DNA of 64,000 nt, taken from the NCBI RefSeq assembly GCF_036250755.1, contig NZ_CP109583.1:4278001-4342000 (forward strand), in the 5' to 3' direction. The notes under the pieces were generated by a model. That model was not told the DNA's origin. It was given only the letters and a program-made list of their open reading frames with translations, and did not search any database. The DNA comes from Streptomyces uncialis (GTDB lineage Bacteria; Actinomycetota; Actinomycetes; Streptomycetales; Streptomycetaceae). Positions 6,480-60,590 of this stretch are shown one piece after another. A program made the translations under genes and the position numbers. The first letter of the stretch is position 1. The number at the start of each line of letters is the position of its first letter.

Positions 6480-7445
6480 CGCTCCCGCGTCCGAGGTCCG
6501 TCCGGCGGGACGCACTCCGTTCCTGCGCCGTCGCTCGTGGGGTGCGCAGTTCCCCGCGGGCCGCCTTCGCTTGCGCTTCCGAGGTCCGTCCGGCGGGACG
6601 CACTCCGTTCCCGTGCCGTCGCTCGGTGGGTGCGCAGTTCCCCGCGGGCCGCCTTCGCTTGCGCTTCCGAGGTCCGTCCGGCGGGACGCACTCCGTTCCT
6701 GCGCCGTCGCTCGGTGGGTGCGCAGTTCCCCGCGCCCCTGGATGCTGCCCCTGTCCGTCGCTCTTCGGGTGCGGGCCGGTTCTCGTCTTCGCGCAGTTCC
6801 CCGCGCCCCTTTGGGGCGCCATCTGCTTGTTCTTCGGGGCGGGGCCGGTCGGGATTCTCCGTCCTCGATCCGACACGCTCGGTAAGACGTTCCGTGACTC
6901 GACTGAAGAGCATCGGAGTCTGCGAGCAGAGATTCCCGCCCACCCCCTCCCGCAGCCCCGCGACTGCACGAGGAGGGGGGTTCCGCACCCGAAGGGCGAC
7001 CTCAGGGGGCGCCCCAAAGGGGCGCGGGGAACTGCGCACCCCCGTCCGACCCGCACGGGAGCAAGCAGGCCCAGCACAGCAAACCCAGGGGCGCGAGGAA
7101 CTGCGCGAGCAACCAAGGACCACCCGCAGCCGAGCGGGAACCGCAAGAGGCGCGACCAAAGGGGCGCGGGGAACTGCGCAAAAGACGAGGGCGAACCCGG
7201 ACCCGAAGAGCAGCCGCAATGGGGCAGCATCCAGGGGCGCGGGGAACTGCGCACCCCACGAGCGACGGCACAGGGACAAGTACGCCCAGCACAGCAAACC
7301 CAGGGGCGCGGGGAACTGCGCACCCACGGACGTACCCGCACAGGAACAGGTACGTCCAGGTGGGGAACCCAGGGGCGCGAGCGAAGGCGACCCGCACGGG
7401 GACGAGTACGGCCAGGTGTGGAACCGCCGGGGCGAGGAACTGCGG
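6480..7445. repeat. Composite inverted-repeat element, copy A
   Basis: Left arm: three perfect-to-near-perfect 88-bp units starting at 6493, 6581 and 6669, each carrying GTGCGCAGTTCCCCGCG. Core in + orientation at about 6847-6955, with GGGATTCTCCGTCCTCG, CGACTGAAGAGCATCGGAG and GCAGAGATTCCCGCCC blocks. The right arm repeats the short motif in reverse (GCGCGGGGAACTGCGC) near 7020, 7160, 7240 and 7310, with decayed copies elsewhere. It fills the space between the start of the CBM protein gene and the stop of cdgB. This copy has one core change (CTGCGAGCAG rather than CTGCGGGCAG). Confidence 0.85.
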
Positions 7446-7469
7446 GGCCGACGGAAGGGAGGACCAGGA

Positions 7470-9161
7470 CTACCCCGCGCGACGCTGCTGCTTCGCCCGA
7501 CTCCGCTTCTCCGCGTACATCAACTGATCCGCGGACTTCAGCACCTCTTCCGCGGTCATCCCGCACCGCGCCCACCCGATCCCGAAACTCGCCCCCACCC
7601 GCACGGCCCGCCCGTCCACCCGGATGGGCGGAACGATCGCGTTCCGCAGCCGCACCGCGAGATCCTGCGCGTCCGCGCTGCCGAGCCCGTCGGCCAGCAC
7701 CACGAACTCGTCGCCGCCCAGCCGGGCCACCGTGTCGCCGTCCCGCACCCCGCTGGTGAGCCGCCGCGCGACCTCGATGAGGACCGCGTCCCCCGTGTGG
7801 TGCCCGAACCGGTCGTTGATCGACTTGAAGCCGTCGAGGTCGCAGAAGAGGACGGCGAGCCCCTTCGTCCCGTCGTCGTGCTCGCCCTCGGGGGCGACGA
7901 CGTGCACATGGTCGTACCCGACGACCGGCTGACCGGCCGGGGTGTCGAAGCGTTCCACCGCCCGCGCGGCCCGCTCGGCCAGCGCCTCCTCCTGGTCGAA
8001 GCCGTGCATCCCGGGCCCCCCGTACGCGGCGTCCGGGGACTCCCCCGCCGCCTCCCGCCCGTCGGCGGTCGACGCGGGCCGCCGGCACAGCCGCGCGGAG
8101 AGCCGGGACCGCAGCTCCGCGGAGTTCGGGAGTCCGGTCAGGGCATCGTGGCTGGCCCGGTGGGCGAGCTGGAGCTCGCGCCGTTTGCGCTCCTCTATGT
8201 CCTCGACATGCGTCAGCAGGAAGCGGGGCCCGTCGGCGGCGTCCGCGACGACGGAGTTGCGCAGTGACACCCATACGTAGGTGTTGTCCCGGCGCGCGAG
8301 CCGCAGCTCCGCGCGCCCGCCCTCGGCGGAGGTGCGCAGCAGGGTGCCGATGTCCTCGGGGTGGACCAGGTCGGAGAAGGAGTAGCGCCGCATGGCGGAG
8401 GCGGGGCGGCCGAGGAGGCGGCACAGCGCGTCGTTGGTGCGCAGCAGCCGGCCGCGCTGGTCGCCGCCCATCTCCGCTATCGCCATTCCGCTGGGCGCGT
8501 ACTCGAACGCCTGCCGGAAGGACTCCTCGCTGGCCCGCAGCGCCTGCTGCTCGCGTTCGAGGCGGACGAGTGCGCGCTGCATGTTTGCTCGCAGACGTGC
8601 GTTGCTTATGGCAATGGCGGCCTGGAACGCGTACATCTGGAGGGCTTCGCGGCCCCACGCGCCGGGCAGCCGGCCGTTGCGCGGACGGTCCACGGAGAGG
8701 ACGCCGATCAGCTCCCCGGGCAGTGCGCCGTTGGCCCAGAGGGGGGCGAAGAGGCGGTCGGAGGGGTGCCACTCGTCCTCGAACCGGGGCTCCGGTCCGT
8801 CGGTGTACCACTGCGGGACGTCGTCCTCGTCGAGGACCCAGCCCTCGGAGTGCGGGATGAAGATCAGGCTGCCCCAGCGCTCCCCCATGCCGAGCCGCCG
8901 GTCCCAGGCGGCGCGCGGGCCGACCCGGCCGGTGATGAGGGCTTCGGCGGACGCGTTCCCGGCGAAGGCGGCGACGACGAGGTCGCCGTCGGGGCGTACC
9001 AGGTTCACCGCGGCCAGCTCGTACCCGAGGCCGCTGACGACACCGTTCGCGACCGTCTGCACGGTGTCCGCGAGGCTGCGCGCCGTGTTCATGTCGGCCA
9101 TCACCTGATGCAGCTGCCGCAGGGTCGCAAGGCGGACGTACGGCTCCGATTCCGTCTCCAT
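7470..9161 (-). CDS. cdgB: GAF-PAS-GGDEF diguanylate cyclase CdgB
   Basis: Makes cyclic di-GMP from two GTP and thereby delays differentiation; in S. coelicolor cdgB is a known BldD target. 563 aa from the ATG at 9161, chosen for GGGGAGG upstream and because METESEPYVRLATLRQLHQVM is the usual family start; the frame runs 101 codons further without support. Order: N-terminal GAF-like sensor (about 10-190), PAS/PAC (about 205-330, ending in VEDIEERKRRE), GGDEF (about 335-560). The active site GGDEF is intact at 482-486 and an RxxD inhibitory site (RDGD) sits five residues before it, so product inhibition is expected. About 70 residues, Ala/Glu-rich, are inserted between DALTGLPN and FCDLDGFK. 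Confidence 0.92.
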   Translation of the reverse strand: METESEPYVRLATLRQLHQVMADMNTARSLADTVQTVANGVVSGLGYELAAVNLVRPDGDLVVAAFAGNASAEALITGRVGPRAAWDRRLGMGERWGSLIFIPHSEGWVLDEDDVPQWYTDGPEPRFEDEWHPSDRLFAPLWANGALPGELIGVLSVDRPRNGRLPGAWGREALQMYAFQAAIAISNARLRANMQRALVRLEREQQALRASEESFRQAFEYAPSGMAIAEMGGDQRGRLLRTNDALCRLLGRPASAMRRYSFSDLVHPEDIGTLLRTSAEGGRAELRLARRDNTYVWVSLRNSVVADAADGPRFLLTHVEDIEERKRRELQLAHRASHDALTGLPNSAELRSRLSARLCRRPASTADGREAAGESPDAAYGGPGMHGFDQEEALAERAARAVERFDTPAGQPVVGYDHVHVVAPEGEHDDGTKGLAVLFCDLDGFKSINDRFGHHTGDAVLIEVARRLTSGVRDGDTVARLGGDEFVVLADGLGSADAQDLAVRLRNAIVPPIRVDGRAVRVGASFGIGWARCGMTAEEVLKSADQLMYAEKRSRAKQQRRAG

Positions 9162-9256
9162 GCTCGCCCTCCCCGAGACGTCTACAGCAACTCCAAGGTC
9201 TCTCTGCGGCCGGGTGCGGCTGGGTGCACCCGGGTGCGGCGTCCCTGCCACTGAAT

Positions 9257-9270
9257 CACAGCGAGCTGTG
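9257..9270. promoter_or_regulatory. Perfect palindrome upstream of cdgB (proximal)
   Basis: CACAGC (9257-9262), two bases, GCTGTG (9265-9270), about 95 bp upstream of the cdgB start codon. It is a candidate operator. It does not obviously match the published BldD box spacing. Confidence 0.4.
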
Positions 9271-9304
9271 CACCCGGTACACAGGGTCAACAAATAATGG
9301 ACCC

Positions 9305-19477: not shown

Positions 19478-19479
19478 AC

Positions 19480-19589
19480 GTCCCACCGGCCCGGGTCAGG
19501 GACCCCAGCGGCCCGGGTCAGGGACCCCAGCGGTCCGGGTCAAGGGTCCCACCGGTCCGGGTCGGGGGCCCCAGCGGTCCGGGTCAGGG
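19480..19589. repeat. 22-bp tandem repeat, five copies
   Basis: Five consecutive 22-bp units start at 19480, 19502, 19524, 19546 and 19568. The consensus begins with (G/A)(T/C)CCCA(C/G)CGG and ends with (C/T)CCGGGTCAGGG. The array begins three bases after the senR stop and runs toward the next gene. It could act as a transcription roadblock or be neutral minisatellite. Confidence 0.85.
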
Positions 19590-19653
19590 GTGTCGCGGGC
19601 CCCAGGGGAAGGGGCAGTGAAGGGGGCGGCGCGGGCGTGACACCATCTCCTCT

Positions 19654-23825: not shown

Positions 23826-24296
23826 CCTCCCGCCTTCGCTTGCGCTTCCGAGGTCCGTCCGGCGGGACGCACTTCGGTCCTGTGCGGGTCGCCTTCGCTT
23901 GCGCTTTTGAGGTCTGTCCGGCGGGGCGCAATTGTTCCGGTGCCGTCGCTCGTGGGTTTCGCGCAGTTCCCCGCGGGTCGCCTTCGCTTGCGCTTTTGAG
24001 GTCTGTCCGGCGGGACGCGCTTGTTCCCGCACAGGTCGTTCGTGGGGTGCGCAGTTCCCCGCGCCCCTTTGGGGCGCGTCCGGTCTGTTCTTCGGGTCGG
24101 TGCCGGTCGGGATTCTCCGTCCTCGCTCCAACGCGCTCGGTACGACGTCCCTCTTGCCCGACTGAAGAGCATCGGAGTCTGCGGGCAGAGATTCCCGCCC
24201 ACCCCCTTACGTGAGTCCTGCGGGTGCGCGCGGAGGGGGGTTCCACGCCCACCCGATGGGGACGCCTCCGAGGGACGCGGGGAACTGCGCATCTAC
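23826..24296. repeat. Composite inverted-repeat element, copy B
   Basis: The left arm has three CTTCGCTTGCGCTT-led units (about 23833, 23892 and 23981), the middle one shortened. A GCGCAGTTCCCCGCGCCCC hinge lies near 24048. Core in + orientation at 24105-24208, of the CTCCAACGCGC subtype shared with copy E. The right arm is short, ending in ACGCGGGGAACTGCGC near 24290. It starts one base after the MFS stop codon. Confidence 0.85.
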
Positions 24297-24397: not shown

Positions 24398-24533
24398 GTT
24401 GTACGCTTCCTGGACGGAGCAGGTGCGCGGGTACACGTGATCCGTTCGGAGGAGCGCCAGAGATGGCCACGGGGGTGCGATGCGACTAAAGGAAATCGGC
24501 CCGATCCCGCGAAAGACCCGCAGGTCAGGAAGT
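24398..24533 (+). promoter_or_regulatory. CRISPR leader of array 1
   Basis: 136 bp immediately before the first repeat. It is alignable to the segment before array 2 (29959-30091): shared blocks GGACGGAGCAGGT, GTGCGATGCGACTAAAG, CGGCCCGA and ACCCGCAGGTCAGGAAGT. Conservation next to the repeat is what is expected of a transcribed leader used for adaptation. Confidence 0.75.
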
Positions 24534-24866
24534 ATGGTCCCCGCACGCGCGGGGGTGGTCCGGGCCAGCGTCCGCCGCGACTTCCGGGTCTTGGATGGTC
24601 CCCGCACGCGCGGGGGTGGTCCGCACAGGGACGGGGTCCTCACGGCCGCCAGGGAATGGTCCCCGCACGCGCGGGGGTGGTCCCGCCCCGTCGATGTACA
24701 CCGACTGGCCGCCCGCATGGTCCCCGCACGCGCGGGGGTGGTCCGGTCGACGCGGTGCTCCCGGGCGGGACCAAGGTGTGCTCCCCGCACGCGCGGGGGT
24801 GGTCCGTGGTGCCCATGTCGACGGCATCCCGGAACGCGATGGTCCCCGCACGCGCGGGGGTGGTCC
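24534..24866 (+). CRISPR. CRISPR array 1, type I-E-like, 6 repeats
   Basis: Six 28-bp repeats start at 24534, 24595, 24656, 24717, 24778 and 24839, an exact 61-bp period giving five 33-bp spacers. The repeat starts ATGGTCCCCGC and ends CGCGGGGGTGGTCC, with an internal palindrome (CCCCGC / GCGGGG), like the I-E repeats common in Streptomyces. Repeat 5 differs at its start (GTGCTCC). All spacers differ from each other. The orientation is inferred from the leader on the low-coordinate side. No cas gene lies in the window. Confidence 0.95.
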
Positions 24867-29958: not shown

Positions 29959-30091
29959 TTGTACCCTTCGGGGACGGAGCAGGTCACGTGTGCACATGAT
30001 CCGCACGGAGGGGCTCCGAAGACGGCCACGGGGTGCGATGCGACTAAAGAAAAACGGCCCGACCCCGTGAGAAACCCGCAGGTCAGGAAGT
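29959..30091 (+). promoter_or_regulatory. CRISPR leader of array 2
   Basis: Homologous to the array 1 leader (24398-24533) over its whole length, with substitutions and short gaps. The last 60 bp before the repeat are best conserved. An AT-richer patch (GACTAAAGAAAAACGG at about 30042-30057) is the usual place of leader promoter elements. Confidence 0.75.
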
Positions 30092-30620
30092 GTGGTCCCC
30101 GCACGCGCGGGGGTGGTCCTCCTAGCGGATTCGGGTGGGAAAGGCAAGGGGGGTGGTCCCCGCACGCGCGGGGGTGGTCCAGCTCCCCGGCTGGATCGCG
30201 TCCGGCGGCGGCGGTGGTCCCCGCACGCGCGGGGGTGGTCCTGAGCGACGAACATCCGAACCTCTCCAACCTGCGTGGTCCCCGCACGCGCGGGGGTGGT
30301 CCCTGAGGGGCGAGTACCGGACGCTCACGGAGCAGGTGGTCCCCGCACGCGCGGGGGTGGTCCGTGTTTGGGATTCGCGGACGCTCGCCCGAAAGCGTGG
30401 TCCCCGCACGCGCGGGGGTGGTCCTCTACTCGCGGATGCGGGGGTGGTCCCTTGAACACCCCAAGCTCCGGGTCATCGGCCAAGTGGTTCCCGCACGCGC
30501 GGGGGTGGTCTGTGGCTGAGTGCGCCGTTGCCGTTGCGGCCCGTGGTGGTCCCCGCCCGCGCGAGGGTGGTCCGTCGACCAGGTCTGCCCGCCCCGACGA
30601 CCTGCCGTGGTCCCCGCACG
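30092..30620 (+). CRISPR. CRISPR array 2, type I-E-like, with decayed distal end
   Basis: Six identical 28-bp repeats (GTGGTCCCCGC...GCGGGGGTGGTCC) start at 30092, 30153, 30214, 30275, 30336 and 30397, period 61. Then come a degenerate repeat ending at 30450 that overlaps the previous unit (only 26 bp after it), one at 30484 with two changes, one at 30546 with two changes after a 34-bp spacer, and a half repeat at 30607-30620. Decay at the leader-distal end confirms the orientation. The first repeat base is G here but A in array 1. Confidence 0.95.
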
Positions 30621-35534: not shown

Positions 35535-36926
35535 ATGGGCACGGTCAACGGCGGCATCTCGTACTGGTTCACCGAGGACGGCCTCCCGGCGCCCCGCGAA
35601 CCCCTGCCCGGTGACACGAGCGCCGATGTGGTGATCGTCGGCGGCGGCTACACCGGCCTGTGGACGGCGTACTACCTCAAGCGGGCCGACCCCGAACTGC
35701 GCATCACCGTCCTGGAACAGCGGTTCTGCGGATACGGCGCCTCCGGCCGCAACGGCGGCTGGCTGTACAACGGCATCGCGGGCCGCGACCGGTACGCGCG
35801 GCTGCACGGACACGAGTCAGCGGTACGGCTCCAGAAGGCGATGAACGGCACGGTCGCCGAGGTGATCCGGGTCGCCGCCGAGGAGAAGTGGTCGGCGGAC
35901 CTCCACCAGGGCGGTGTGCTGGAGGTGGCCCTCACCCCGGCGCAGCTGGTGCGGCTGCGCGCGTTCCACGAGGCGGAACGCGCGTACGGGGAGGACGAGC
36001 GTCTGCTGCTGGGTGCCCGCGAGACCGCCGAACGGATCAGGATCGCCGGCGCCGTGGGCTCCTCCTGGACCCCGCACGGGGCACGGCTGCACCCGGTGAA
36101 GCTGGTCAAGGCGCTGGCGGCGAGCGTCGAGGCGCTGGGTGTCACCGTCCATGAGTCGACGCCCGTCACGGAGATCCGCCCGGGGCACGCGGTCACCCCG
36201 TACGGCACGGTCCGCGCCCCGTACGTGCTGCGCTGCACGGAAGGGTTCACCGCGTCGCTCAAGGGCCAGCGCCGCACCTGGCTGCCGATGAACTCCTCGA
36301 TGATCACCACCGAGCCGCTGACCGAGGAGCAGTGGGAGTCCGTCGGCTGGGCGGGCCGCGAGGCGCTCGGGGACATGGCCCACGCGTACATGTACGCGCA
36401 GCGCACGGCGGACGGGCGGATCGCGCTGGGCGGCCGGGGCGTCCCGTACCGCTTCGGCAGCCGCACCGACAACGACGGCGGTACCCAGCGGGCCACGGCC
36501 CGGGAACTGCGGGCGGTGCTCACCCGGTTCTTCCCGCAGCTCGCGGGGGTGGGGATCGCCCACGCCTGGTCCGGGGTGCTGGGGGTGCCGCGTGACTGGT
36601 GCGCCACGGTGACGCTGGACCGGGCGACCGGGCTCGGCTGGGCGGGCGGCTATGTCGGCTCGGGGGTCGCCACGGCGAACCTCGCGGGGCGGACGCTGCG
36701 GGATCTGGTCCGGCACGACGCGGGGCGTTCCGGGGCGGGTGAGCTCGCCGCGTTGCCGTGGGTGAACCACCGGGTCCGCAAGTGGGAGCCGGAGCCGCTG
36801 CGCTGGCTCGGGGTGCAGGGGATGTACGCGACGTATCGCGAGGCGGACCGGCGTGAGCGGGTCGGTCGGGGCGCCGCGTCGTCGCGCTTGGCGCGGGTCG
36901 CGGACCGCGTTGCGGGACGCGGCTGA
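35535..36926 (+). CDS. FAD-dependent oxidoreductase (DAO family)
   Basis: 463 aa. Dinucleotide-binding motif VVIVGGGYTGLWTAYYL (GGGYTG at 36-41) with the ribose-binding Glu in ITVLEQRFCGYGASGRNGGW; SGRNGGW is the hallmark of the glycine/gamma-glutamylputrescine oxidase branch. A C-terminal FAD box (GWAGGYVGSGVATANLAGRTL) is present. Likely oxidises a secondary or primary amine. GGAGG precedes the ATG at 35535. Element copy C starts just after its stop. Confidence 0.88.
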   Translation: MGTVNGGISYWFTEDGLPAPREPLPGDTSADVVIVGGGYTGLWTAYYLKRADPELRITVLEQRFCGYGASGRNGGWLYNGIAGRDRYARLHGHESAVRLQKAMNGTVAEVIRVAAEEKWSADLHQGGVLEVALTPAQLVRLRAFHEAERAYGEDERLLLGARETAERIRIAGAVGSSWTPHGARLHPVKLVKALAASVEALGVTVHESTPVTEIRPGHAVTPYGTVRAPYVLRCTEGFTASLKGQRRTWLPMNSSMITTEPLTEEQWESVGWAGREALGDMAHAYMYAQRTADGRIALGGRGVPYRFGSRTDNDGGTQRATARELRAVLTRFFPQLAGVGIAHAWSGVLGVPRDWCATVTLDRATGLGWAGGYVGSGVATANLAGRTLRDLVRHDAGRSGAGELAALPWVNHRVRKWEPEPLRWLGVQGMYATYREADRRERVGRGAASSRLARVADRVAGRG

Positions 36927-36951: not shown

Positions 36952-37411
36952 ACGCCTTCGCTTGCGCTTCCGAGGTCTGTCCGGCTGGACGTAGTTGTTC
37001 CCCTGCTGGTCGTTCGTGGGTGCGCAGTTCCCCGCGCCCCTGGGTGCTGCCCCCTCGCGGTCGCTCTTCGGGTGCGGGCCGGTCCTCGTCTTCGCGCAGT
37101 TCCCCGCGCCCCTTTGGGGGCGCCTCAGCCCCTTGCTGTTGTTGTTCACCATCCTCCTCGCGGACTCGCGCTGCTGCGGGAGGGGGTGGGCGGGAATCTC
37201 TGCCCGCAGACTCCGATGCTCTTCAGTAGGACCACTGGACGTCGTACCGAGCGTGTCGGATCGAGGACGGAGAATCCCGACCGGCACCGACCCGAAGAAC
37301 CGACCGGACGCGCCCCAAAGGGGCGCGGGGAACTGCGCAAACCCACCGAGCGACGGCACAGGAACGAAGTCCGCCCCGCCGGACAGACCTGGGAAGCGCA
37401 AGCGAAGGCGA
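36952..37411. repeat. Composite inverted-repeat element, copy C
   Basis: Core in minus orientation at about 37171-37283 (GATCCGACACG subtype). Left arm: CGCAGTTCCCCGCGCCCCT near 37022 and 37097. Right arm: GGGGCGCGGGGAACTGCGC near 37319, then the reversed unit GGAAGCGCAAGCGAAGGCG running to 37411. The element ends exactly at the stop codon of the endonuclease-TerD fusion gene and sits between convergent genes. Confidence 0.85.
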
Positions 37412-39727
37412 CTACTGGACGTCGATACCGAAGTCCCCCACCAACTCGCCGAGGCCGCCCCCGTACCCCTTGCCGCCGACCACGAAGGTCCAGTCGCCGC
37501 CCGCGCGGCGGCGGAACGACCCGAGTACCAGCGCGCTCTCCCCCGCACGGCCGTCGGACACCTCCAGCCGGTCGAGCTCGGTGCCGTCGGCCGCGCGCAG
37601 CCGTATCCCCGCGCCGGTGAAGCCCGCGAGGTCGGCGTCCGGATTGACCGCCGGGTCGACGGCCGCGACGAGCACGATCCGGTCGGCCCGGTCCGGCACC
37701 GCGTCGAACGCGACCCGCACCGCCGCCCGGTCCCCCGCGAAGTCCCCGAGCATCCGGACCGAGCCGTCCGGGGTGCGCGGATTGTTGAAGAAGACGAACC
37801 AGTCGTCCGCGAGGACCCGCCCGCCCTGGCACACCAGCGCGCACACGTCGAGGGCGACCGCCCCGGACCAGGACATCCCGAGGACGTTGAAGTCCCCGTG
37901 ATCGCCGGGGTCCCCGTCGTCCTCCCCGTGGGTGCGGTCGGCGGGCCGGCCGTGCCCCGCCGCAGGGCCGTCGGGCCCGGTCGGCATGACCAGCGTGGGC
38001 GCCGTGGACGAGAACCCCGCCGAACCACCTGAACCACCTGAACCAGCGAAATCCGGCCCCGCACCGCCCCCCGAGCCACCGGAGGACCGCCCGCCGCCGG
38101 AAGGCCCGCCGCCGGACGACCGGGCCCCACCGGAGGACCGGCCGCCCCCGGACGACCCGCCCCGGGGACCCCCGTCCCCGAGGCGCCCCCGCAACCCGTG
38201 CTGATGGAGCAGCTCCACCAGCTCGGGCCCGGACACCAGGGTCAGCGGCTTGCCGTTCGCGAAGGTGTAGGAACCGGGGCCGAAGCCGGACGTGGTGACG
38301 AGGACGCCCTTGTTGGCGCCCGCGTCCTGCACGGTCCCGTACAGATCGCGGACCGCGCTCGGCGGGACGGTGTTGCGGTACCGCTTGACCTGGACGACGA
38401 TCTTGCCGCCGCTGATCGGGTCCGGGTCGACCGCGTCGACGTCGACCCCGCCGTCACCCGACCGCTGGGTGGTGACCGCCTGCATGCCCCGGGCCCGGAA
38501 CAGCTCCGCGACCAGCACCTCGAACGCCAGCGGGTCCATCTCCAGCAGATCCGGCTCGGTACCGTCCCCGTGGCTGACCACCCCCGCGCCGACCTGCTCC
38601 GGCAGCCGCGCCGGACGGACCGCGACCCGCTGGTCGGGCTTGGCCGACAGCGAGCCGCCGAGCCCGTCCGTGAGGCAGTCCGCCGCGTTCACGGTCTCCA
38701 GCCGCAGCCCGTCGAACGCGCCGCGCTCCGCCAGCACCGACGCCACGAACAGCTCCGTGCGGCGGCCCGTCGCCGGGTCGAAGTCGTCCACGAAGCCGTT
38801 CAGCGCGACGGACGACAGCACCCCGAACTCGTCGGCCGCGAACACGTCCCGCAGGGCGAGCAGCACGCTCTGCGCGAGCACGTCCCGGTAGACGGCCCGC
38901 CGCTGGGTCTGCGGCCGGGCCGTCTCCTTCAGCTGGTCGGCGCTGACCACGTACCGTACGGACCTGGCCTCGGGGACCACGTCGGCCGCGGGCAGCTGCC
39001 AGTTGAGGACGAACTGCCGGGCGGCCGGGTCGAACGCGGCGCTGACCTGGCGGGGGAAGCCCTCCGGCCAGACCGAGTTGGCGTACAGGGCGGCGGAGAA
39101 GTACTCGATGACCGTCTCCGGTTCGGCGCCGCGCAGACTGGACGTCATCTCCTGGATGTTCGCGTTGTGCGCGCGGACCTCGGCGTTCCGTCCGGCGGCC
39201 CAGGTCTCGTAGCGGTGCCGGTAGTCCGCGAGTTCCCGCAGGCGCCGCTCCTCCGCGAGCCGGGCCGTGTCCCAGTCCCGGCGGTAGCGGTCCTCGGCGT
39301 CCCGCTGGGCCCGCGCCCGCGCGCCGGCCGTCCAGCCGCCGCCCTGGGTGACGTACGCCCTCGGGTCGGGCATCGGCACGGGCGCCGCGAGCGGACCGGG
39401 CTCGAACGGGGCCACCGACTCCTCCCGCCGCAGCGCCGCCACCCGGAACGCGGGCGCCCGGCAGCCCGCGACCAGCAGCCCGCTCAGTTCCGCGACCCGT
39501 GCCTCGATCTCCTCGGTGCGCCCCCGGGCGTCCGCCTCCCGCCGCGCGCGGTACGCGGCCTGCTGCTCCCGGTGCATCCGGGCCAGGTCCCGCTCCCGGG
39601 CCCGCTGATCGCGCTCGTACTCCCGCCGCTCGCGGGCCTGCCGGCGCAGCCCCTCCTCGTACTGCCGCTGCTGCTGCCGCTGGGCCTCGGCCCACGTCCC
39701 GATCAGCCCGCCCGAACCCCGCCCCAC
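37412..39727 (-). CDS. Mrr-type restriction endonuclease fused to a TerD domain
   Basis: 771 aa. Order: Arg/Glu/Gln-rich coiled coil (about 10-110), a Trp/Arg-rich helical region and a middle domain of unknown type (about 190-400), then an Mrr_cat endonuclease domain (about 415-510): MDPLAFEVLVAELFRARGMQ, GDGGVDVDAV with the catalytic Asp near 430 and QVKRY near 446 (the D-QxK form of the PD-D/ExK site). A Gly/Ser linker of about 70 residues follows, and finally a TerD domain (about 605-771) with FFNNPRTPDGS. Mrr enzymes cut methylated DNA; Ter proteins act in stress and phage response. Reports of Ter domains linked to DNA-processing enzymes exist (Anantharaman, Iyer and Aravind), so a defence role is inferred. 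Confidence 0.88.
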   Translation of the reverse strand: MGRGSGGLIGTWAEAQRQQQRQYEEGLRRQARERREYERDQRARERDLARMHREQQAAYRARREADARGRTEEIEARVAELSGLLVAGCRAPAFRVAALRREESVAPFEPGPLAAPVPMPDPRAYVTQGGGWTAGARARAQRDAEDRYRRDWDTARLAEERRLRELADYRHRYETWAAGRNAEVRAHNANIQEMTSSLRGAEPETVIEYFSAALYANSVWPEGFPRQVSAAFDPAARQFVLNWQLPAADVVPEARSVRYVVSADQLKETARPQTQRRAVYRDVLAQSVLLALRDVFAADEFGVLSSVALNGFVDDFDPATGRRTELFVASVLAERGAFDGLRLETVNAADCLTDGLGGSLSAKPDQRVAVRPARLPEQVGAGVVSHGDGTEPDLLEMDPLAFEVLVAELFRARGMQAVTTQRSGDGGVDVDAVDPDPISGGKIVVQVKRYRNTVPPSAVRDLYGTVQDAGANKGVLVTTSGFGPGSYTFANGKPLTLVSGPELVELLHQHGLRGRLGDGGPRGGSSGGGRSSGGARSSGGGPSGGGRSSGGSGGGAGPDFAGSGGSGGSAGFSSTAPTLVMPTGPDGPAAGHGRPADRTHGEDDGDPGDHGDFNVLGMSWSGAVALDVCALVCQGGRVLADDWFVFFNNPRTPDGSVRMLGDFAGDRAAVRVAFDAVPDRADRIVLVAAVDPAVNPDADLAGFTGAGIRLRAADGTELDRLEVSDGRAGESALVLGSFRRRAGGDWTFVVGGKGYGGGLGELVGDFGIDVQ

Positions 39728-40594: not shown

Positions 40595-41968
40595 ATGGCC
40601 ACGAGGAAGCGCACCCCCAACCCGAACCTCGCCCGGCTGCTCGACCAGGCAGGCTGGACGCGTACTCAGTTGGCACAGCAGGTCAACCGGCTCGGCCCGC
40701 AGGCCGGACTGGAGCTGACCTACGACCGCACCGCGGTCGCGCACTGGATCGCCGGCACAGCGCCGAGACCGCAGGTCAGGGCACTGATCGTCGAGGCGTT
40801 CTCGGCACGGCTCGGACGGCCCGTCACCCATGCGGAGGCCGGACTGTGCCCCGCGGTGCCGCCCGGCCCGGCCGACGGCCGGGGCGCCACGGGCGACGCA
40901 GTGGAGGAGCTGATCGACCTCGGCCGCGCGACCATGGACCCCTCCCGGCGGGGGGTCCTCGCCGCGTCGGTGTTCTCCGCCGCGCTCACCCTCCCGGCGT
41001 TCACCGCGACCGCGCACGCCGCGCCGCGCCCCGAGGCCGAGTGGCGTCCGGGCCAGCGCACCACCCGGATCGGCGCCTCCCAGGTCTGGTCGGTACGGAC
41101 GATGACCGAGCGGATCGCGGACATCCTCGACGAGCTCGGCGCGGCGCACGCCATGCCCATGGCCTCCGCGTTCCTGGTGAACACCGTCGGCCCCTGGCTC
41201 AAGGCGCAGGCCGGGGACCAGGTCCGCAAGGACATGCTGGCCGCCGCGTCCGACCTGGCGTACCTCACCGGCTGGATGGCGATGTACGAGAAGGCCCACG
41301 GACTCGGACAGAAGTACTACGTCCGCGCGCTCGGGCTGGCCCAGGAGGCCGGGGACCAGGTCACCTACTGCCGCACCCTGCGCGGGATGTCCCTCCAGGC
41401 GTCGAACCTGGGCCACGGTCACAAGGCGCTGGAGCTCGCCGACTCGGCCGCCGAGGCGGCGCCCTCCGCCGGGCCCCGGCTGCTGGCGTTCCTGCGCGGC
41501 CAGCAGGCGCACGCGGCGGCGATGGTCGGCGACCGCCGCCGCGCGCACGCCCGGCTGCGGGAGGCCGAGGACGCGCTGTCCCGCGCCGACAGCCGGCGCG
41601 AGGCGATCGGCGGGTACGACCGGACGGCCTGGCTGTTCCACGTCGCACACGTGCTCAACGAGGAACGGGACCTCGCGGGCAGCATCCGGGTCCTCCAGCA
41701 GTCGATCCGGCACCAGCCCGCGCAGGAGCGGCAGGGCCGGGCCCACGCGTACGCGGTGCTCGCGCGGCGGCAGGTCGCGCTAGGACACCTGGACGCGGCC
41801 TGCCACAGCTGGGGCCGGTTCCTCGACGAGTACGAGCATGTGAGCAGCGCGCGGGCGGACGACCACTTCGGGACGCTGCGCGCGGCGATCAGACAGCACG
41901 CGAAGTCCCGCCCCGTGGAGGAACTGGCGGAGCGGGCCCGGGAGATCGGGGCACTCAAGGCGGCGTGA
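40595..41968 (+). CDS. XRE regulator with TPR-like C-terminal region
   Basis: 457 aa. DNA-binding region at about 10-70 (LARLLDQAGWTRTQLAQQVNRLG...YDRTAVAHWIAGTAPRPQVRALIVEAF). A segment RRGVLAASVFSAALTLPAFTATAHA looks like a Tat/hydrophobic motif but is common inside this regulator family. Helical TPR-like repeats follow (AHGLGQKYYVRALGLAQEAGD, HGHKALELADSAAE, GRAHAYAVLARRQVALGHLDAACHSW). The family controls development or metabolism in streptomycetes, often through an adjacent HATPase or DUF397 protein. The phased repeats upstream may be its own operator. Confidence 0.85.
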   Translation: MATRKRTPNPNLARLLDQAGWTRTQLAQQVNRLGPQAGLELTYDRTAVAHWIAGTAPRPQVRALIVEAFSARLGRPVTHAEAGLCPAVPPGPADGRGATGDAVEELIDLGRATMDPSRRGVLAASVFSAALTLPAFTATAHAAPRPEAEWRPGQRTTRIGASQVWSVRTMTERIADILDELGAAHAMPMASAFLVNTVGPWLKAQAGDQVRKDMLAAASDLAYLTGWMAMYEKAHGLGQKYYVRALGLAQEAGDQVTYCRTLRGMSLQASNLGHGHKALELADSAAEAAPSAGPRLLAFLRGQQAHAAAMVGDRRRAHARLREAEDALSRADSRREAIGGYDRTAWLFHVAHVLNEERDLAGSIRVLQQSIRHQPAQERQGRAHAYAVLARRQVALGHLDAACHSWGRFLDEYEHVSSARADDHFGTLRAAIRQHAKSRPVEELAERAREIGALKAA

Positions 41969-42410
41969 CGCCTTCGCTTGCGCTTCCCAGGTCCGTCCGG
42001 CGGGACGTACTCCGTTCCTGTGCCGTCGCTCGGTGGTTTCGCGGTTCCCTGCGGGGCGCCTTCGCTTGCGCTTCCCAGGTCCGTCCGGCGGGGCGCACTT
42101 CGTCCCTGTGCCGTCGTCCGGTGGTTTCGCGCAGTTCCCCGCGCCCCTTGGGGCGCATCCGGTCTGTTCTTCGGGTCGGTGCCGGTCGGGATTCTCCGTC
42201 CTCGATCCGACACGCTCGGTACGACATCCCCCTTACCCGACTGAAGAGCATCGGAGTCTGCGGGCAGAGATTCCCGCCCACCCCCTCCCGCAGCACCGCG
42301 CCTGCACGAGGAGGAGGGTGAAAAACAACCCCAGGTGGGCGCCCCTTCAGGGGCGCGGGGAACTGCGCGAAGACGAGGGCGGACCCGCACCCTAGGAGCG
42401 ACCGTAAGGG
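41969..42410. repeat. Composite inverted-repeat element, copy D
   Basis: Left arm: two units 88 bp apart (CCTTCGCTTGCGCTTCCCAG at 41971 and 42059). Core in + orientation at 42181-42295, in which CTGCGGG and the later CCCGCAG can pair. Right arm: GGGGCGCGGGGAACTGCGC near 42352. It starts at the stop of the XRE/TPR gene and lies between convergent genes. Confidence 0.85.
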
Positions 42411-43747: not shown

Positions 43748-43821
43748 AGCCCCCTGTCGGATTCGAACCGACGACCTTCGCTTTACAAGAGCGGCGCTCT
43801 GGCCAACTGAGCTAAGGGGGC
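43748..43821 (-). tRNA. tRNA-Thr (anticodon UGU)
   Basis: 74 nt cloverleaf on the minus strand: acceptor GCCCCCT/AGGGGGC with discriminator T, D arm GCTC-AGTTGGCCA-GAGC, anticodon loop CTTGTAA, T arm GTCGG-TTCGAAT-CCGAC. CCA is not encoded. The 27-43 pair is a mismatch (C/A). Opposite-strand frames reading CRIRTDDLRFTRAALWPTELRG are the usual tRNA translation artefact. Confidence 0.95.
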
Positions 43822-43963: not shown

Positions 43964-44054
43964 GCTTCACCCGCCGCGGGGCATCCCGGGGTGGATCACC
44001 TTCTTTACTCGGATCGTCCGGCACGTTCCTGCCGGTGAAGGGGGCTTCACAGCC

Positions 44055-45996: not shown

Positions 45997-46734
45997 ATGA
46001 CCGATCCGCACGCCCACGCGCGTCCGACACAAGCCGTCGTCCTGGCCGGGGGCCAGGGGACGCGGCTGCGCCCCTACACCGACGACCGGCCCAAGCCGAT
46101 GGTGGAGATCCCGGGTACCGGGGTCCCGATCATCGGGCACCAGCTGGCCTGGCTCGCCGAGGAGGGCGTGACCGACGCCGTCATCTCGTGCGGGCATCTC
46201 GCCGAGGTCCTCCAGGAGTGGCTGGAGTCGGCGGACCTGCCACTGCGGGTCACCACCGTCGTGGAGAAGGAGCCCCTCGGGCGGGGCGGCGGCCTCAAGT
46301 ACGCGGCTGGGCATCTGCCGCACGCGGACCGGCCCTGGTACGCCACCAACGGGGACATCTGGACGCGGTTCTCACTGCGGGAGATGGCCGCGTTCCACGC
46401 GGAGCGGGACGCCACGGCGACGCTGGCGCTGGCCCGGCCCCGGATTCCCTGGGGGGCCGTCGAGACCGACCGCTTCGGGCACATCACCGACTTCATCGAG
46501 GCGCCGCCCTCGCCGTTCCTCATCAACGCCGGTGTGTACGTGTTCTCCTCGGAGTTCACCGCGCTGCTGCCGGACCGGGGCGACCACGAGCGGACCACGT
46601 TCCCCGGGCTGGCCCGGACCCAGCGGCTCGCGGGGTTCCCCATCCCGCAGGGCGCGTACTGGCGGGCCATCGACACGGCGAAGGACCTCACGGAAGCCTC
46701 CAAGGAACTGGCGGCCACCCGCACAACCGGGTAG
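45997..46734 (+). CDS. Nucleotidyltransferase (sugar-phosphate NTP transferase family)
   Basis: 245 aa. N-terminal AVVLAGGQGTRLRPYTDDRPKPMVEIPG is the nucleotide-binding signature of glucose-1-phosphate/mannose-1-phosphate nucleotidyltransferases, followed by WYATNGDIWT (metal-binding Asp) and YVFSSEFTALLP. Without the C-terminal left-handed beta-helix of GlmU-like enzymes, it is the short form. It probably activates a sugar phosphate for glycan synthesis; the substrate is undetermined. Element copy E follows directly. Confidence 0.88.
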   Translation: MTDPHAHARPTQAVVLAGGQGTRLRPYTDDRPKPMVEIPGTGVPIIGHQLAWLAEEGVTDAVISCGHLAEVLQEWLESADLPLRVTTVVEKEPLGRGGGLKYAAGHLPHADRPWYATNGDIWTRFSLREMAAFHAERDATATLALARPRIPWGAVETDRFGHITDFIEAPPSPFLINAGVYVFSSEFTALLPDRGDHERTTFPGLARTQRLAGFPIPQGAYWRAIDTAKDLTEASKELAATRTTG

Positions 46735-46739: not shown

Positions 46740-47440
46740 TCGCCCCCGAGCTCCGTCCACCTGGACGTACCTGTTCCCGTGCGGGGCGTTCGCGGGTGCG
46801 CAGTTCCCCGCGGGTCGCCTTCGCTCGCGCCCCCGAGCTCCGTCCACCTGGACGTACCTGTTCCCGTGCGGGGCGTTCGCGGGTGCGCAGTTCCCCGCGG
46901 GTCGCCTTCGCTCGCGCCCCCGAGCTCCGTCCACCTGGACGTACCTGTTCCCGTGCGGGGCGTTCGCGGGTGCGCAGTTCCCCGCGCCCCTGAGGTGCGG
47001 CCCTCTTACGGTCGCTCTTCGGGTGCGGGCCGGTCCTCGTCTTCGCGCAGTTCCCCGCGCCCCTGAAGGGGCACCCCTCTCCTCCCGCAGTCGCGCTGCT
47101 GCGGGAGGGGGTGGGCGGGAATCTCTGCCCGCAGACTCCGATGCTCTTCAGTCCGGCAAGAGGGACGTCCGACCGAGCGCGTTGGAGCGAGGACGGAGAA
47201 TCCCGACCGGCACCGACCCGAAGAACCGGCCGGATGCGCCCCAAAGGGGCGCGGGGAACTGCGCACCCCACGAGCGACGGCACAGGACCGAAGTACGCCC
47301 ACCCGGACACACCTCGGAAGCGCAAGCGAAGGCGACCCGCGGGGAACCGCGAAACCCACGAACGACGGCACAGAAAACAACTCGCCCCGCACAGGAAACT
47401 CCGGGCCGGGGCGCCGACAGCCGAAGGGGACCCGGCGCGG
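46740..47440. repeat. Composite inverted-repeat element, copy E
   Basis: Left arm: three 87-bp units starting at 46748, 46835 and 46922, almost identical to each other and distinct from the 88-bp units of copy A (GAGCTCCGTCCACCTGGACG in place of GAGGTCCGTCCGGCGGGACG). Core in minus orientation at 47099-47213, of the CTCCAACGCGC subtype shared with copy B. Right arm: GGGGCGCGGGGAACTGCGC near 47246. It lies between convergent genes. Confidence 0.85.
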
Positions 47441-47465: not shown

Positions 47466-49226
47466 TCAGTTCGCGTCGAGGATGCCCCCGACAAGCCCCG
47501 GCCGCTGCTCAGGCGCCCCCCCGGTCCCCCCGGTGCTCGCCCCCGCCGACGCGGCCCCAGGAGCCCCCCCGGTGGCCCCGCCACCGGTGGTCCCCCCCGT
47601 GGCCCCGCCCGAAGAGGGCCCCGCACTGGTCGCCGCCGGCGGCGCCTGCGTGGGCGCCGCCTGCCGCACGGGAGCCTCCTGCGCGGCCCCCTGCGTCTGG
47701 CTGGGCGTGGTCCCCGCCCCCGCCACCCCCGCGGACTGCGTGGCCCCCGGCACCCCGGGCGTCGCCGCGACAGTCCGGGAGGGCGCGGCGGAGGCGCCGG
47801 CACTCGACGGCGTCGGCGTACCGGACGGCGTCGGCGTCGCACTGCCCCGTGCCTTGTCGCGCCGCTCCGCGGACTCCTGCGGCAGCGGCGAGCCGGGCAG
47901 CTCGTTACGGGGCGCCTGACCGGGCCCCGGCACCGTGATCCGGTCGGAGTCGCGCACCGCGCCACCGAGCAGGGAGCCGATGAGGAGCGTGAGACCGACC
48001 GCGACGGACGCGACGACCATCCCGCGCCGCAGCACCCGCCGCCGCAGCTCCCACAGCTCGGCGCGCGGACCGAGGTTGCGCCACGCCTCCGAGGCGAGCC
48101 GCCCGTCCACCGAGTAGACCGGCGCGCCCGCGATGACCAGCGGCGACCAGGCGGCCAGATAGATGATGTCGGGCGCGTCGTACGCGGGGACCGTCCGCCA
48201 GCTCACCGTCACGATGAGCGCCGCGGACAGCAGCACCCCGACGACCGCGGCGACCCGCTGCCACAGTCCCAGGACCGTCAGCACACCGACGATGACCTGG
48301 AGGAACGCGATGGTCAGCCCGGCGCCCACCGGGTGCTGGAGCGCGAAGTCCCGCAGCGGTTCGGCGAGTCCCCAGGGGTGCAGCGAGGTCAGCCACTTGA
48401 CCATGGAGCCGCGTTCGCCGCCGTCGAAGTAGACGGGGTCGGAGAGCTTGCCCATCCCGGCGTAGATGGAGATGAAGCCGAGGAAGACGCGCAGCGGCAG
48501 CAGCACCACGCCGAGGTTCATCCGGCGGCCGGGGTAGTAGGCGTGCCGGACGGAGTCGCCGGTGCGCCGTTCGCCGTCCCGGTCGGTGCTCGCGTCGAGG
48601 TCGTACGCGTCGTCGTCGTAGTGGTGCTCGTACCGGTCGTGACGGTCGTCGCGGTCGTAGGGACCGTACGCGTCGTAGCCGTCCTGGTCGTCGAGCGGTC
48701 CGGCGGGCTCCTCGTACGCGCTGCCCGTGCTGCGGGTCTGCGCGGGCAGCAGCCGGGTCTCGGGCTCGCCCGACCGGTGTCCGGGGATACCGGGGCTCTC
48801 GACGGTGTCCTCGAACGCCGTCCCGGGGCCGACCCGCGGGATGACCTGCGTGGCTCCGCCGGGGTCCGGCTCGCCGGCGGCACCGACGTGCCGGACGCCG
48901 GGCCCCCGCACGGCCTGGAGCAGCCCGGTGGCGCCGGTGTCGCCGGGGGCCGAGCGGCCGCTCCAGACGACGGGGGCGCGGCGGCGCGCGGCGGTAGGTC
49001 CGAGGGCGGGGATACGCGCGGTGTCGACGGCGGCGCTCGCGTTCCGCGCGATGCGCGGGGACCGCGTCGGCTGCGCGGTGTTGAGCTGCACGCGGAAGCT
49101 CGCATGATTGACGATGACCTGCGCCGGATCGCTCGGCACCTTCACCATGCTCAGCGCGGGAGCGTCGTCGAAGCCCGACGAGCGGTCCCCCGTGGGTGTG
49201 CGGGGTGTTCTGGTGTCCACACTCAT
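47466..49226 (-). CDS. DoxX-domain membrane protein with long disordered flanks
   Basis: 586 aa. About 240 N-terminal residues are polar, with an Asp/His/Tyr-rich stretch (DRDDRHDRYEHHYDDDAYDLD). Then a DoxX domain of four membrane helices (NLGVVLLPLRVFLGFISIYAGMGKL, TIAFLQVIVGVLTVLGLW, VVGVLLSAALIVTVSW, IIYLAAWSPLVIAG), one more membrane helix and a Thr/Pro/Ala/Gly tail of about 130 residues. DoxX-type domains occur in quinone-linked redox proteins. A surface or membrane redox role is possible but unproven. Confidence 0.82.
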   Translation of the reverse strand: MSVDTRTPRTPTGDRSSGFDDAPALSMVKVPSDPAQVIVNHASFRVQLNTAQPTRSPRIARNASAAVDTARIPALGPTAARRRAPVVWSGRSAPGDTGATGLLQAVRGPGVRHVGAAGEPDPGGATQVIPRVGPGTAFEDTVESPGIPGHRSGEPETRLLPAQTRSTGSAYEEPAGPLDDQDGYDAYGPYDRDDRHDRYEHHYDDDAYDLDASTDRDGERRTGDSVRHAYYPGRRMNLGVVLLPLRVFLGFISIYAGMGKLSDPVYFDGGERGSMVKWLTSLHPWGLAEPLRDFALQHPVGAGLTIAFLQVIVGVLTVLGLWQRVAAVVGVLLSAALIVTVSWRTVPAYDAPDIIYLAAWSPLVIAGAPVYSVDGRLASEAWRNLGPRAELWELRRRVLRRGMVVASVAVGLTLLIGSLLGGAVRDSDRITVPGPGQAPRNELPGSPLPQESAERRDKARGSATPTPSGTPTPSSAGASAAPSRTVAATPGVPGATQSAGVAGAGTTPSQTQGAAQEAPVRQAAPTQAPPAATSAGPSSGGATGGTTGGGATGGAPGAASAGASTGGTGGAPEQRPGLVGGILDAN

Positions 49227-58483: not shown

Positions 58484-58545
58484 GTCTCCAGGTTAGGCAC
58501 GCTCCGCCGGGGGTCCACAGCCGTCCGGGTGTCAGCTCGAACACT

Positions 58546-58589: not shown

Positions 58590-58684
58590 GTGCCGGAAAC
58601 GGACGCGTACGGGCCGGAACGTGGGAGCGTGGGGTTCACGGGCAACGGAGGACCCCGGCGGACGTGAGAAAGGGACGAACCGGC

Positions 58685-59365
58685 ATGCGGGACGCGTACC
58701 ACGAGGAACTTGACTCGATCGGGGACGACCTGGTCGAGATGGCCAGGCTCGTCGGGTCGGCGATCGGGCGCGCCACGACGGCGATCCTCGACTCCGATCT
58801 GAAGCTGGCGGAGACCGTCATCGCCGCCGATCAGAAGGTCGACGACCTCCAGCACGACTTGGAGGCGCGGGCGATCGCGCTGCTCGCGCGGCAGCAGCCG
58901 GTGGCCACGGATCTGCGGATCGTGGTCACGAGCCTGCGGATGAGCGCGGACCTGGAGCGGTCCGGCGACCTCGCGCAGCATGTCGCCAAGCTGGCGCGGC
59001 TGCGGTTCCCGGACCGGGCGGTGCCGCAGGACCTGCACGCGACGATCCTGGAGATGGGGCAGCTCGCGCAGCGGCTGATGGCCAAGGCGGCGGAGGTCAT
59101 CGTGACCAAGGACGTCGATCTGGCGATGCAGCTGGAGCAGGACGACGACGAGATGGACCTGCTGCACCGGACGCTGTTCCAGCACCTGATCGACGAGCGC
59201 TGGAAGCACGGGATAGAGACCGCGGTCGATGTGACGCTGCTGGGCCGCTACTACGAGCGGTTCGCCGATCACGCGGTGTCGGTGGCGAAGCGGGTGGTCT
59301 ATCTCGTCACCGGTGAGCACGCGGACGAGCTGACGCACACGCCCAGCCCGGTGGAGGGGGCGTAG
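58685..59365 (+). CDS. phoU: Phosphate transport regulator PhoU
   Basis: 226 aa from the ATG at 58685 (GAAAGGG upstream). Two repeats of a three-helix bundle, each with the E/DxxxD metal motifs (EELDSIGDDLVEMARLVGSA and LHATILEMGQLAQRLMAKAAEV), and YYERFADHAVSVAKRVVYLVTG at the end. Links phosphate transport status to PhoR signalling. Divergent from phoR, as in other streptomycetes. Confidence 0.94.
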   Translation: MRDAYHEELDSIGDDLVEMARLVGSAIGRATTAILDSDLKLAETVIAADQKVDDLQHDLEARAIALLARQQPVATDLRIVVTSLRMSADLERSGDLAQHVAKLARLRFPDRAVPQDLHATILEMGQLAQRLMAKAAEVIVTKDVDLAMQLEQDDDEMDLLHRTLFQHLIDERWKHGIETAVDVTLLGRYYERFADHAVSVAKRVVYLVTGEHADELTHTPSPVEGA

Positions 59366-59549
59366 CCCCTTACGGGGTGCCCTTACCGGGCGGGGCGCGG
59401 CTCTTTCCGGTTCCGGGCGGGGTGATCGGCCTTCCCCCGCCCGGCGGGGCCTTGCGGGGCTGCTGCCGAGGCTCTGCGGGCTGCCGCCGGGGCTCTGCGG
59501 GCTGCCGCCTGGGCGGGTGAGGCCGTGCGGGGCTGCTGCGGGCCGGTGG

Positions 59550-59720
59550 TCAGCCGCAGCCGCCGCCGCACTGGCAGGAGCCGCCGGACTGGCAGCCGCA
59601 CGAGCAGCCCGGTCCGCAGCCGCACGCGCCGAGGAGGACCAGCTCGGGCAGGCCGGGGGCGGGCGGGGTGACGCTCGGTGGTGTCTCGTTCACGGTGTCG
59701 GGCTTCGGGGACTCGGCCAT
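59550..59720 (-). CDS. Cys/Gly-rich mini-protein
   Basis: 56 aa from the ATG at 59720, with GGAGGG at the right distance. A 30-residue Pro/Ser-rich lead is followed by LPELVLLGACGCGPGC and SCGCQSGGSCQCGGGCG: eight cysteines in the last 24 residues, in CGC, CSC and CQC pairs. The spacing suggests a metallothionein-like or sulphur-rich metal-binding tail, but a ribosomally made peptide precursor is another possibility. No modifying enzyme is adjacent. Confidence 0.6.
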   Translation of the reverse strand: MAESPKPDTVNETPPSVTPPAPGLPELVLLGACGCGPGCSCGCQSGGSCQCGGGCG

Positions 59721-59814
59721 GGGTTCCCTCCCTGAGGATGCGCCCCTGGGTGGGGCGTGGGGCTTGACGCCTTCCTTCCATTGACGTGGGGGGTGGTGGG
59801 GCGCGTCAACGGCG

Positions 59815-60590
59815 CACGGTCGCCTTCGCTTGCGCTTTCTCGGTTTCCCTGTGCTGGGCGTACTTGTTTGCTGTGCCGTCGTTCGGTGGTTTCGCGGTTC
59901 CCTGCGGGTCGCCTTCGCTTGCGCTTCCTCGGTTTCCTGTGCTGGGCGTACTTCGTTCCCGCACAGGTCGTTCGTGGGGTGCGCAGTTCCCCGCGCCCCT
60001 TCGGGGCGCGTCCGGCCGGTTCTTCGGGTCGGTGCCGGTCGGGATTCTCCGTCCTCGATCCGACACGCTCGGTACGACGTACCCGTACCCGACTGAAGAG
60101 CATCGGAGTCTGCGGGCAGAGATTCCCGCCCACCCCCTTCGGTAGCCAGGCGAGTCCGCGAGGAGGATGGTTCCGCAGACGACGGACACATGATGGGGCG
60201 CCCCCAAAGGGGCGCGGGGAACTGCGCGAAGACGAGAACCGGCCCGCACCCGACGAACAACCGCAAGGGGGCAGCACCTCAGGGGCGCGGGGAACTGCGC
60301 GAGAACGAGGGCAGACCCGCACCCGAAGAGCGACCGCAATAGGGCAGCATCCAGGGGCGCGGGGAACTGCGCGAGCAACCAAGAACCACCCGCACCCGAA
60401 CGGGAACCGCAAGGGGCGCAACCTAAGGGGCGCGGGGAACTGCGCACCCCGGACGTACCCGCACGGGAACAAGTACGCCCAGGTGGGGAACCCCAGGGGC
60501 GCGAGGAACTGCGCACCCCGGACGTACCCGCACAGGGACAAGTACGTCCAGCTGGACGGACCTCGGAAGCGCAAGCGAAGGCGACCCGTT
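59815..60590. repeat. Composite inverted-repeat element, copy F
   Basis: Left arm: two units about 89 bp apart (CCTTCGCTTGCGCTT at 59823 and 59912) with a CTCGGTTTCC(C)TGTGCTGGGCG variant. Core in + orientation at 60035-60140 (GATCCGACACG subtype). The right arm is long, with the reversed motif (GGGGCGCGGGGAACTGCGC) near 60211, 60282, 60354 and 60427, ending in GGAAGCGCAAGCGAAGGCG near 60584. It lies between the Cys-rich mini-gene start and the trypsin gene, about 120 bp before the latter. Confidence 0.85.

What the first reader, a model, noticed from the sequence alone, without database searches (positions are those of the whole stretch)
6480..60590. Six-copy composite element with a nearly invariant core
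Six regions (6480-7445, 23826-24296, 36952-37411, 41969-42410, 46740-47440, 59815-60590) share a core of about 105 bp: TCGGGATTCTCCGTCCTCG ... CGACTGAAGAGCATCGGAG ... GCGGGCAGAGATTCCCGCCC. Sequence outside the core is arranged in inverted arms. Core orientation varies (4 plus, 2 minus) while position at gene 3' ends is kept. A core this conserved in unrelated intergenic regions, with no open frame in common, implies selection or recent spread. Direct pairing is possible inside it (GCGGG/CCCGC; CTGCGGG/CCCGCAG in copies C, D and E), so an RNA or DNA structure is plausible. It fits no feature type I can name.
Basis: seen in the sequence. Interest (0 to 1): 0.75.

Follow-up and report, generated by a model that had tools for sequence, protein, structure and literature searches.

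The report
Species-specific mirror-symmetric 3'-end DNA repeat
A soil bacterium close to Streptomyces uncialis carries a non-coding, mirror-symmetric DNA element in about 200 copies, nearly always beside the end of a gene, whose core hardly changes while its middle keeps changing; it may have taken over the job of marking where gene transcripts end.

Summary
The window genome holds 182 right-block and 217 left-block copies of the core; Streptomyces uncialis DCA2648, 98.8% identical in flanks, holds 186 and 217. None was found in 391, 392 and 294 other Streptomyces genomes (overlapping samples). The core is a ~98-bp imperfect palindrome between inverted tandem arms whose polarity never varied (878 of 878 arms). 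The arm motif is genus-wide, the core is not. Of copies with both neighbours called, 54 of 57 and 89 of 96 have a gene 3' end beside them. The outer module lies within 10 nt of a stop codon in 58 of 118 3'-facing sides and 0 of 83 5'-facing sides. Sites look immobile: 25 of 25 own sites shared. Between strains conserved block sites differ at 0.13% (four common polymorphic sites set aside), flanks at 1.21%, while the apical loop differs in 40 of 54 pairs: gene conversion plus constraint. Covariation is absent. Best reading: a new lineage-specific BIME/ERIC-like repeat, probably serving as transcript 3' end; that function is inferred.

The parts
6480..7445 (.). composite element A (4 arms left, core +, 5 arms right)
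6845..6941 (+). core A (97 nt)
23826..24296 (.). composite element B
24103..24200 (+). core B (98 nt)
36952..37411 (.). composite element C; fills all but about 26 nt of the gap between convergent genes 35535-36926 (+) and 37412-39727 (-)
37188..37284 (-). core C (97 nt)
41969..42410 (.). composite element D, begins directly after the TGA stop of gene 40595-41968
42182..42279 (+). core D (98 nt)
46740..47440 (.). composite element E between convergent genes 45997-46734 (+, sugar-phosphate nucleotidyltransferase) and 47466-49226 (-, DoxX domain)
47113..47210 (-). core E (98 nt)
59815..60590 (.). composite element F, downstream of a PhoU-domain gene (+), upstream of a trypsin-like gene (+)
60035..60131 (+). 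core F (97 nt)
6544..6806 (-). left arms of A (GCGCAGTTCCCCGCGC-like, at 6544, 6632, 6720, 6791)
7022..7321 (+). right arms of A (GCGCGGGGAACTGCGC-like, at 7022, 7091, 7164, 7237, 7306)
46798..47060 (-). left arms of E (46798, 46885, 46972, 47045)
47249..47264 (+). right arm of E
60212..60514 (+). right arms of F (60212, 60285, 60357, 60430, 60499)
41969..41983 (+). outer module CGCCTTCGCTTGCGC joined to the stop codon (element D)

Best explanation
This is a lineage-specific, high-copy, non-coding intergenic repeat of BIME/ERIC kind. Each copy is a ~98-bp imperfect palindrome (core) inside inverted, tandemly repeated arms; the arm motif belongs to an older repeat found in much of the genus. 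Shown: copy number, arm polarity, preference for gene 3' ends, frequent direct abutment on stop codons, fixed sites, conserved blocks with a hypervariable loop, reshuffling of short patches between copies. Inferred: (1) copies spread in the ancestor of this species group and are now homogenised by gene conversion and by gain and loss of arms, filling dispensable 3' DNA up to the stop codon; (2) the conserved blocks are kept because the element now forms the 3' end of neighbouring transcripts in either direction (terminator or stabilising hairpin), standing in for gene-specific terminator hairpins like those seen at one orthologous site in other species.
For: 182 and 217 blocks in the own genome, 186 and 217 in DCA2648. 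Arms reached from the core: own 161 of 161 left '-' and 172 of 172 right '+'; DCA2648 267 of 267 and 278 of 278. Divergent gene pairs are rare: 3 of 57 own and 7 of 96 DCA2648 copies against 110 of 382 background gaps. Outer module within 10 nt of a stop codon in 58 of 118 3'-facing sides, 0 of 83 5'-facing sides. 25 of 25 own sites shared with orientation kept. Blocks differ at 5 of 3888 sites (four common polymorphic sites set aside) against 1.206% over 136,504 bp of flanks; loop different in 40 of 54 orthologous pairs, 35 by two or more changes; in 32 of those 40 at least one of the two alleles occurs at another locus. Coupling between variable columns is mostly between near neighbours. At site E, 19 of 27 usable orthologs have a perfect 12-32 bp stem within 150 nt of the stop; the window genome's best there is 5 bp. 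In 400 kb of G321, six of 28 arm clusters are inverted -..+ groups around short GC-rich centres, one with a hairpin and T run.
Against: No transcript data. No pair with changes on both sides, and observed covariation is no higher than in any shuffle. Folding energy only 1.2 to 2.4 sd better than shuffles. Core orientation relative to transcription in tandem gene pairs is not biased (52 against 38, p 0.17). In 400 kb, strong hairpins after stops: own 0 of 29 with repeat against 21 of 158 without; DCA2648 2 of 29 against 18 of 163, so genome-wide terminator replacement is only weakly supported. Eight of 27 orthologs at site E also lack a stem of 8 bp, and element E itself holds a 10-bp hairpin 346 nt downstream. 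Counting the four common polymorphic sites, block divergence is 26 of 4104. About 35 copies per genome lack a standard right block (217 left against 182 and 186 right). Block conservation could reflect a recent burst plus conversion rather than function.
Confidence: 0.5

Rival explanations
1. A non-autonomous mobile element (MITE- or REP-like hairpin) that burst in the ancestor and is now inert and selfish; conservation reflects recent origin and gene conversion only, with no cellular function.
For: Found only in this species group, high copy, palindromic, both orientations used equally (89 forward, 93 reverse). Avoidance of genes and promoters is also what selection against harmful insertions gives.
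Against: No target duplication seen by eye in the 45 printed of 101 copies with both outer modules recognised (no formal test); no Y1 transposase in the genome (no other transposase family was searched); no gain or loss among 25 own sites; blocks are about 9-fold more conserved than the flanks while the adjacent loop is far more variable, which uniform conversion alone does not give.
Confidence: 0.33
2. The core is a binding site for a chromosome-organising or other DNA-binding protein (as some BIMEs bind gyrase or IHF, recalled), so sequence, not pairing, is selected.
For: Blocks are constrained as sequence: no paired position shows changes on both sides. Orientation is unbiased on either side of three trial midpoints.
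Against: About 70 invariant positions (73 in 73 own rows, 69 in 132 DCA2648 rows) are long for one protein; no candidate protein was sought or found; the preference for gene 3' ends is not explained.
Confidence: 0.12
3. The core encodes a family of trans-acting small RNAs whose hypervariable loop is the recognition part.
For: Constant flanks with variable apical loop; in 136 distinct rows the three polymorphic stem positions keep standard pairs on the minus strand only, by G-U exchange.
Against: Loop alleles are shared and reshuffled among loci, so loops are not matched to fixed targets; promoters were not looked for; the strand asymmetry rests on three or four sites.
Confidence: 0.05

Closest known systems
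BIME / REP elements of enterobacteria and pseudomonads
   Same: Many copies, extragenic, palindromic units in inverted arrangement, near gene 3' ends; gene conversion has been proposed for them (title of Higgins 1988 seen in the reference list of PMC4681348).
   Different: No Y1 (RAYT) transposase in this genome; PMC2817692 reports GT(A/G)G heads and RAYTs meeting its criteria only in gammaproteobacteria (one passage seen). Here there is one long core per element and arm polarity is absolute.
ERIC (Yersinia) and NEMIS (Neisseria) repeats
   Same: Intergenic repeats cotranscribed with flanking genes that may fold into RNA hairpins (PMC1590033, passages); size and palindromic form similar (recalled).
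   Different: No sequence relation found (Rfam at gathering thresholds); here the palindrome lies inside tandem arms that often abut stop codons; transcription untested.
Genus-wide Streptomyces arm repeat GGGGCGCGGGGAACTGCGC
   Same: It is the arm of this element.
   Different: Elsewhere it stands alone, in tandem, or as inverted pairs around short GC-rich centres, and I saw no such core there: 18 of 27 congeners carry it, with 0-131 exact copies against 1156 here. Literature searches for arm and core motifs as letters gave no relevant paper.

Membership tests
REP/BIME with RAYT | high-copy extragenic palindromes in inverted arrangement | tested here: met
REP/BIME with RAYT | cognate Y1 (RAYT) transposase in the genome | tested here: not met
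   PF01797: no match in own genome; 5 of 14 control genomes rang
MITE | terminal inverted repeats | tested here: inconclusive
   core ends pair with a mismatch and a bulge; outer modules are inverted but variable in number and join
MITE | target-site duplication | tested here: inconclusive
   none seen by eye in 45 printed of 101 two-ended copies; outer boundary itself is variable; no formal test
MITE | insertion polymorphism between strains | tested here: not met
   25 of 25 own sites have a core in DCA2648; in reverse 24 of 25, one half-core with a flank missing from the compared stretch
Rfam-described RNA | match above gathering score | tested here: not met
   only a tRNA and msiK matched in the window
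bidirectional transcription terminator | transcripts end in it | not testable with these tools
   no RNA data held
bidirectional transcription terminator | sits at gene 3' ends, rarely between divergent genes | tested here: met
structured RNA | covarying base pairs | tested here: not met
   0 pairs with change on both sides in 27 rows; in 169 rows coupling mostly follows distance, not pairing
ERIC/NEMIS | cotranscription and RNase III processing | not testable with these tools
   no RNA data held

The most novel reading that the evidence does not exclude
A single non-coding cassette has taken over the 3' ends of a hundred or more genes in one bacterial lineage, replacing individually evolved terminators by a concertedly evolving shared one that is joined directly to stop codons: a genome-wide change of 3'-end architecture driven by gene conversion.
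Probability: 0.25. Interest if true: 0.75.

Novelty: new variant of a known kind. Interest (0 to 1): 0.5.

Why it matters
It offers a natural experiment on how repeats colonise gene 3' ends and stay uniform: about 200 sites, two strains, fixed positions, an internal contrast of conserved blocks and a fast loop, and congeners in which the one site examined mostly holds an ordinary hairpin. Whether concerted evolution can standardise transcript ends across a genome becomes directly testable.

Tried and rejected
Tried without result: Rfam; core against plasmids and phages and a 20-mer in viral contigs; RAYT search; covariance model over 295 genomes, own only, with strict filters; site D in other species, whose flanking gene is too poorly conserved (best 76%) to give orthologous ends; covariation and mutual information; replication-strand bias, none (on 74 exact-match rows).

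Rejected: integron attC or CRISPR identity (on recalled features, tested by no call); lagging-strand single-strand transposition, because orientation is unbiased; the 'empty site' at own index 14, which proved to hold a core with an altered right block; an early crude gene caller, replaced by a codon-usage caller, so gene orientations are not used.

Limits: most copies were collected by the right block, which flatters its conservation. The complete 400-kb stretches and the left-block search corrected this: left block exact in 27 of 28 own and 28 of 28 DCA2648 true copies, but four own and five DCA2648 copies have a changed or missing right block. Orthologous pairs: 54 of 58 used, 4 dropped for length or N; all were found through a right block with up to 7 or 10 mismatches, and 37 came from loci fetched because they had it. 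The background gaps come from the window and from DCA2648 loci fetched for their cores, so they include core-bearing gaps. Counts treat the two strains' copies as separate, so orthologous sites count twice and p-values are too small; four distances are negative (gene call running into the module). Genus samples overlap: 391 + 39 = 430 distinct congeners seen, of a larger group, not all with the same block.
Full report
What was checked. All six cores are in the window at the stated places and orientations. The whole genome (9.26 Mb; window = C1:4278001-4342000) holds 182 matches to the 40-nt right block with up to 3 mismatches, control 0, and 217 to the 24-nt left block, control 0. That genome has 186 right and 217 left blocks. 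Window genome and DCA2648 differ by 1.206% over 136,504 bp of aligned flanks.

Distribution. Own genome included, the right block was found in 1 of 392 and the left block in 1 of 393 Streptomyces genomes, the core by DNA search in 1 of 61 relatives, and by a covariance model in 1 of 295; each time only the own genome. The samples overlap. The arm motif is different: 1156 exact copies here; 18 of 27 other congeners have at least one, 0 to 131 copies; none of 18 genomes outside the genus. In other species the arm occurs singly or in tandem (18 places). In 400 kb of G321 it makes 28 clusters, six of them inverted -..+ groups around short GC-rich centres, two in the opposite +- order, the rest of one polarity. 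In 400 kb of the own genome 24 of 25 mixed -..+ clusters have a core, and 9 of 13 one-polarity clusters have none. 20-mers present at least four times start at 1.93% of positions here, 2.02% in DCA2648, 0.30% in G321, 0.01% in G009.

Anatomy. From outside inward: an outer module starting CGCCTTCGCTTGCGC, tandem arms (period about 88 or 70), a short linker, the core, a GC-rich tail, then the mirror image. Arms left of the core are always '-', right always '+', whatever the core strand: 333 of 333 around 60 own copies and 545 of 545 around 97 DCA2648 copies. In the core frame own copies have 1-5 arms on the 5' side and 0-9 on the 3' side. The core is an imperfect palindrome: only 25 of 2000 mononucleotide shuffles of core A pair half against half as well, and the minus strand folds end to end. 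Energy is only modestly below dinucleotide shuffles (z -1.16, -2.38, -1.47 for three minus-strand copies, -1.75 for one plus strand).

Where it sits. With a codon-usage gene caller no core lies in a predicted gene (0 of 60, 0 of 97). Where both neighbours are called: own 21 convergent, 33 tandem, 3 divergent (57); DCA2648 32, 57, 7 (96); background gaps over 150 nt 68, 204, 110 (382). Where the outer module is the first module met, it lies within 10 nt of the stop codon in 58 of 118 3'-facing sides and within 10 nt of a start in 0 of 83 5'-facing sides; over all first-module types 59 of 190 and 0 of 108 (Fisher p 2e-17 for the first pair, both strains pooled). So the element often begins at the stop codon and keeps away from gene starts.

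Evolution. In a 400-kb syntenic block 24 of 25 own sites had a core in DCA2648 in the same orientation; the 25th proved to have a core with an altered right block. In reverse, 24 of 25 had one; the last, a half-core, lacked a flank in the compared stretch. Three further own copies with altered or missing right block have evident counterparts by sequence. Among 54 orthologous pairs, block sites differ at 5 of 3888 (0.129%), the four common polymorphic sites at 21 of 216, and the 22-column loop in 40 of 54 pairs, 35 of them by two or more changes. In 32 of those 40 at least one of the two alleles occurs at another locus, in 13 both. Orthologs are still more alike than random inter-genome pairs (3.44 against 7.29 loop differences). 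In complete stretches the left block is exact in 27 of 28 own and 28 of 28 DCA2648 true copies, with no decaying series. Sub-types with a changed right block exist (26 stretches fetched, 25 with both blocks readable). Coupling between variable columns is mostly between neighbours, the exception being column 17 with 69, 72 and 76. Together this indicates fixed sites, short-tract gene conversion, strong constraint on the blocks and little on the loop; a mutational hot spot in the loop is not excluded.

Function. At element E the same gene junction in other genomes mostly carries an ordinary hairpin: 19 of 27 usable orthologs (2 of 29 too short) have a perfect stem of 12-32 bp within 150 nt of the stop; the window genome's best there is 5 bp, its best in the whole gap 10 bp, 346 nt downstream. 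In the 58 of 118 cases above there is no room for a native terminator between stop and element. I therefore infer that the element supplies the 3' end. Against this, hairpin statistics over 400 kb are weak and differ between strains, orientation is not tied to transcription, only one site was compared across species, and there are no RNA data.

Structure evidence told fully. In 136 distinct rows three polymorphic stem positions keep standard pairs only on the minus strand, by G-U exchange; the sub-types add, by my reading, a fourth. That is at best a hint of RNA-level selection. No pair changes on both sides, and no measure exceeds its shuffles.

Known kinds. It resembles BIME, ERIC or NEMIS repeats, but the RAYT test failed, and no mobility was seen. 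Papers: PMC4681348 passages and section 11, PMC2817692 one passage, PMC1590033 passages; all others only as search listings. Searches for the motifs as letters found 0 papers and 4 unrelated papers by their titles and abstracts; topic searches listed nothing that I recognised as this repeat. Only the open-access library was searched.

Noticed in passing
window 24530-24866 and 30088-30511: Two CRISPR-like arrays with the same repeat (about 28 nt, 61-nt period) and a similar leader-side sequence (92% over 90 nt).
   Followed up: no
window 43748-43821 (-) and 43993-44050 (+): A tRNA gene and an msiK RNA motif above Rfam thresholds.
   Followed up: no
window 37412-39727 (-): Protein joining an Mrr-type restriction endonuclease domain and a TerD domain; element C begins 1 nt from its stop codon (L058).
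   Followed up: no
window 19482-19591: 22-nt direct repeat in tandem.
   Followed up: no
L239 (G416 C1 near 501674); own C1 near 4237509 and G416 C1 near 842596: Half cores: one right-half copy in DCA2648, and one left-half copy shared by both strains.
   Followed up: partly
L360 (G416 C1 near 419556): Left block followed by unrelated sequence with no right block within 200 nt.
   Followed up: no
L364 and L384: A further apical sub-type with CACTGAAGCATCGG where most copies have ACTGAAGAGCATCGG, present in both strains.
   Followed up: no
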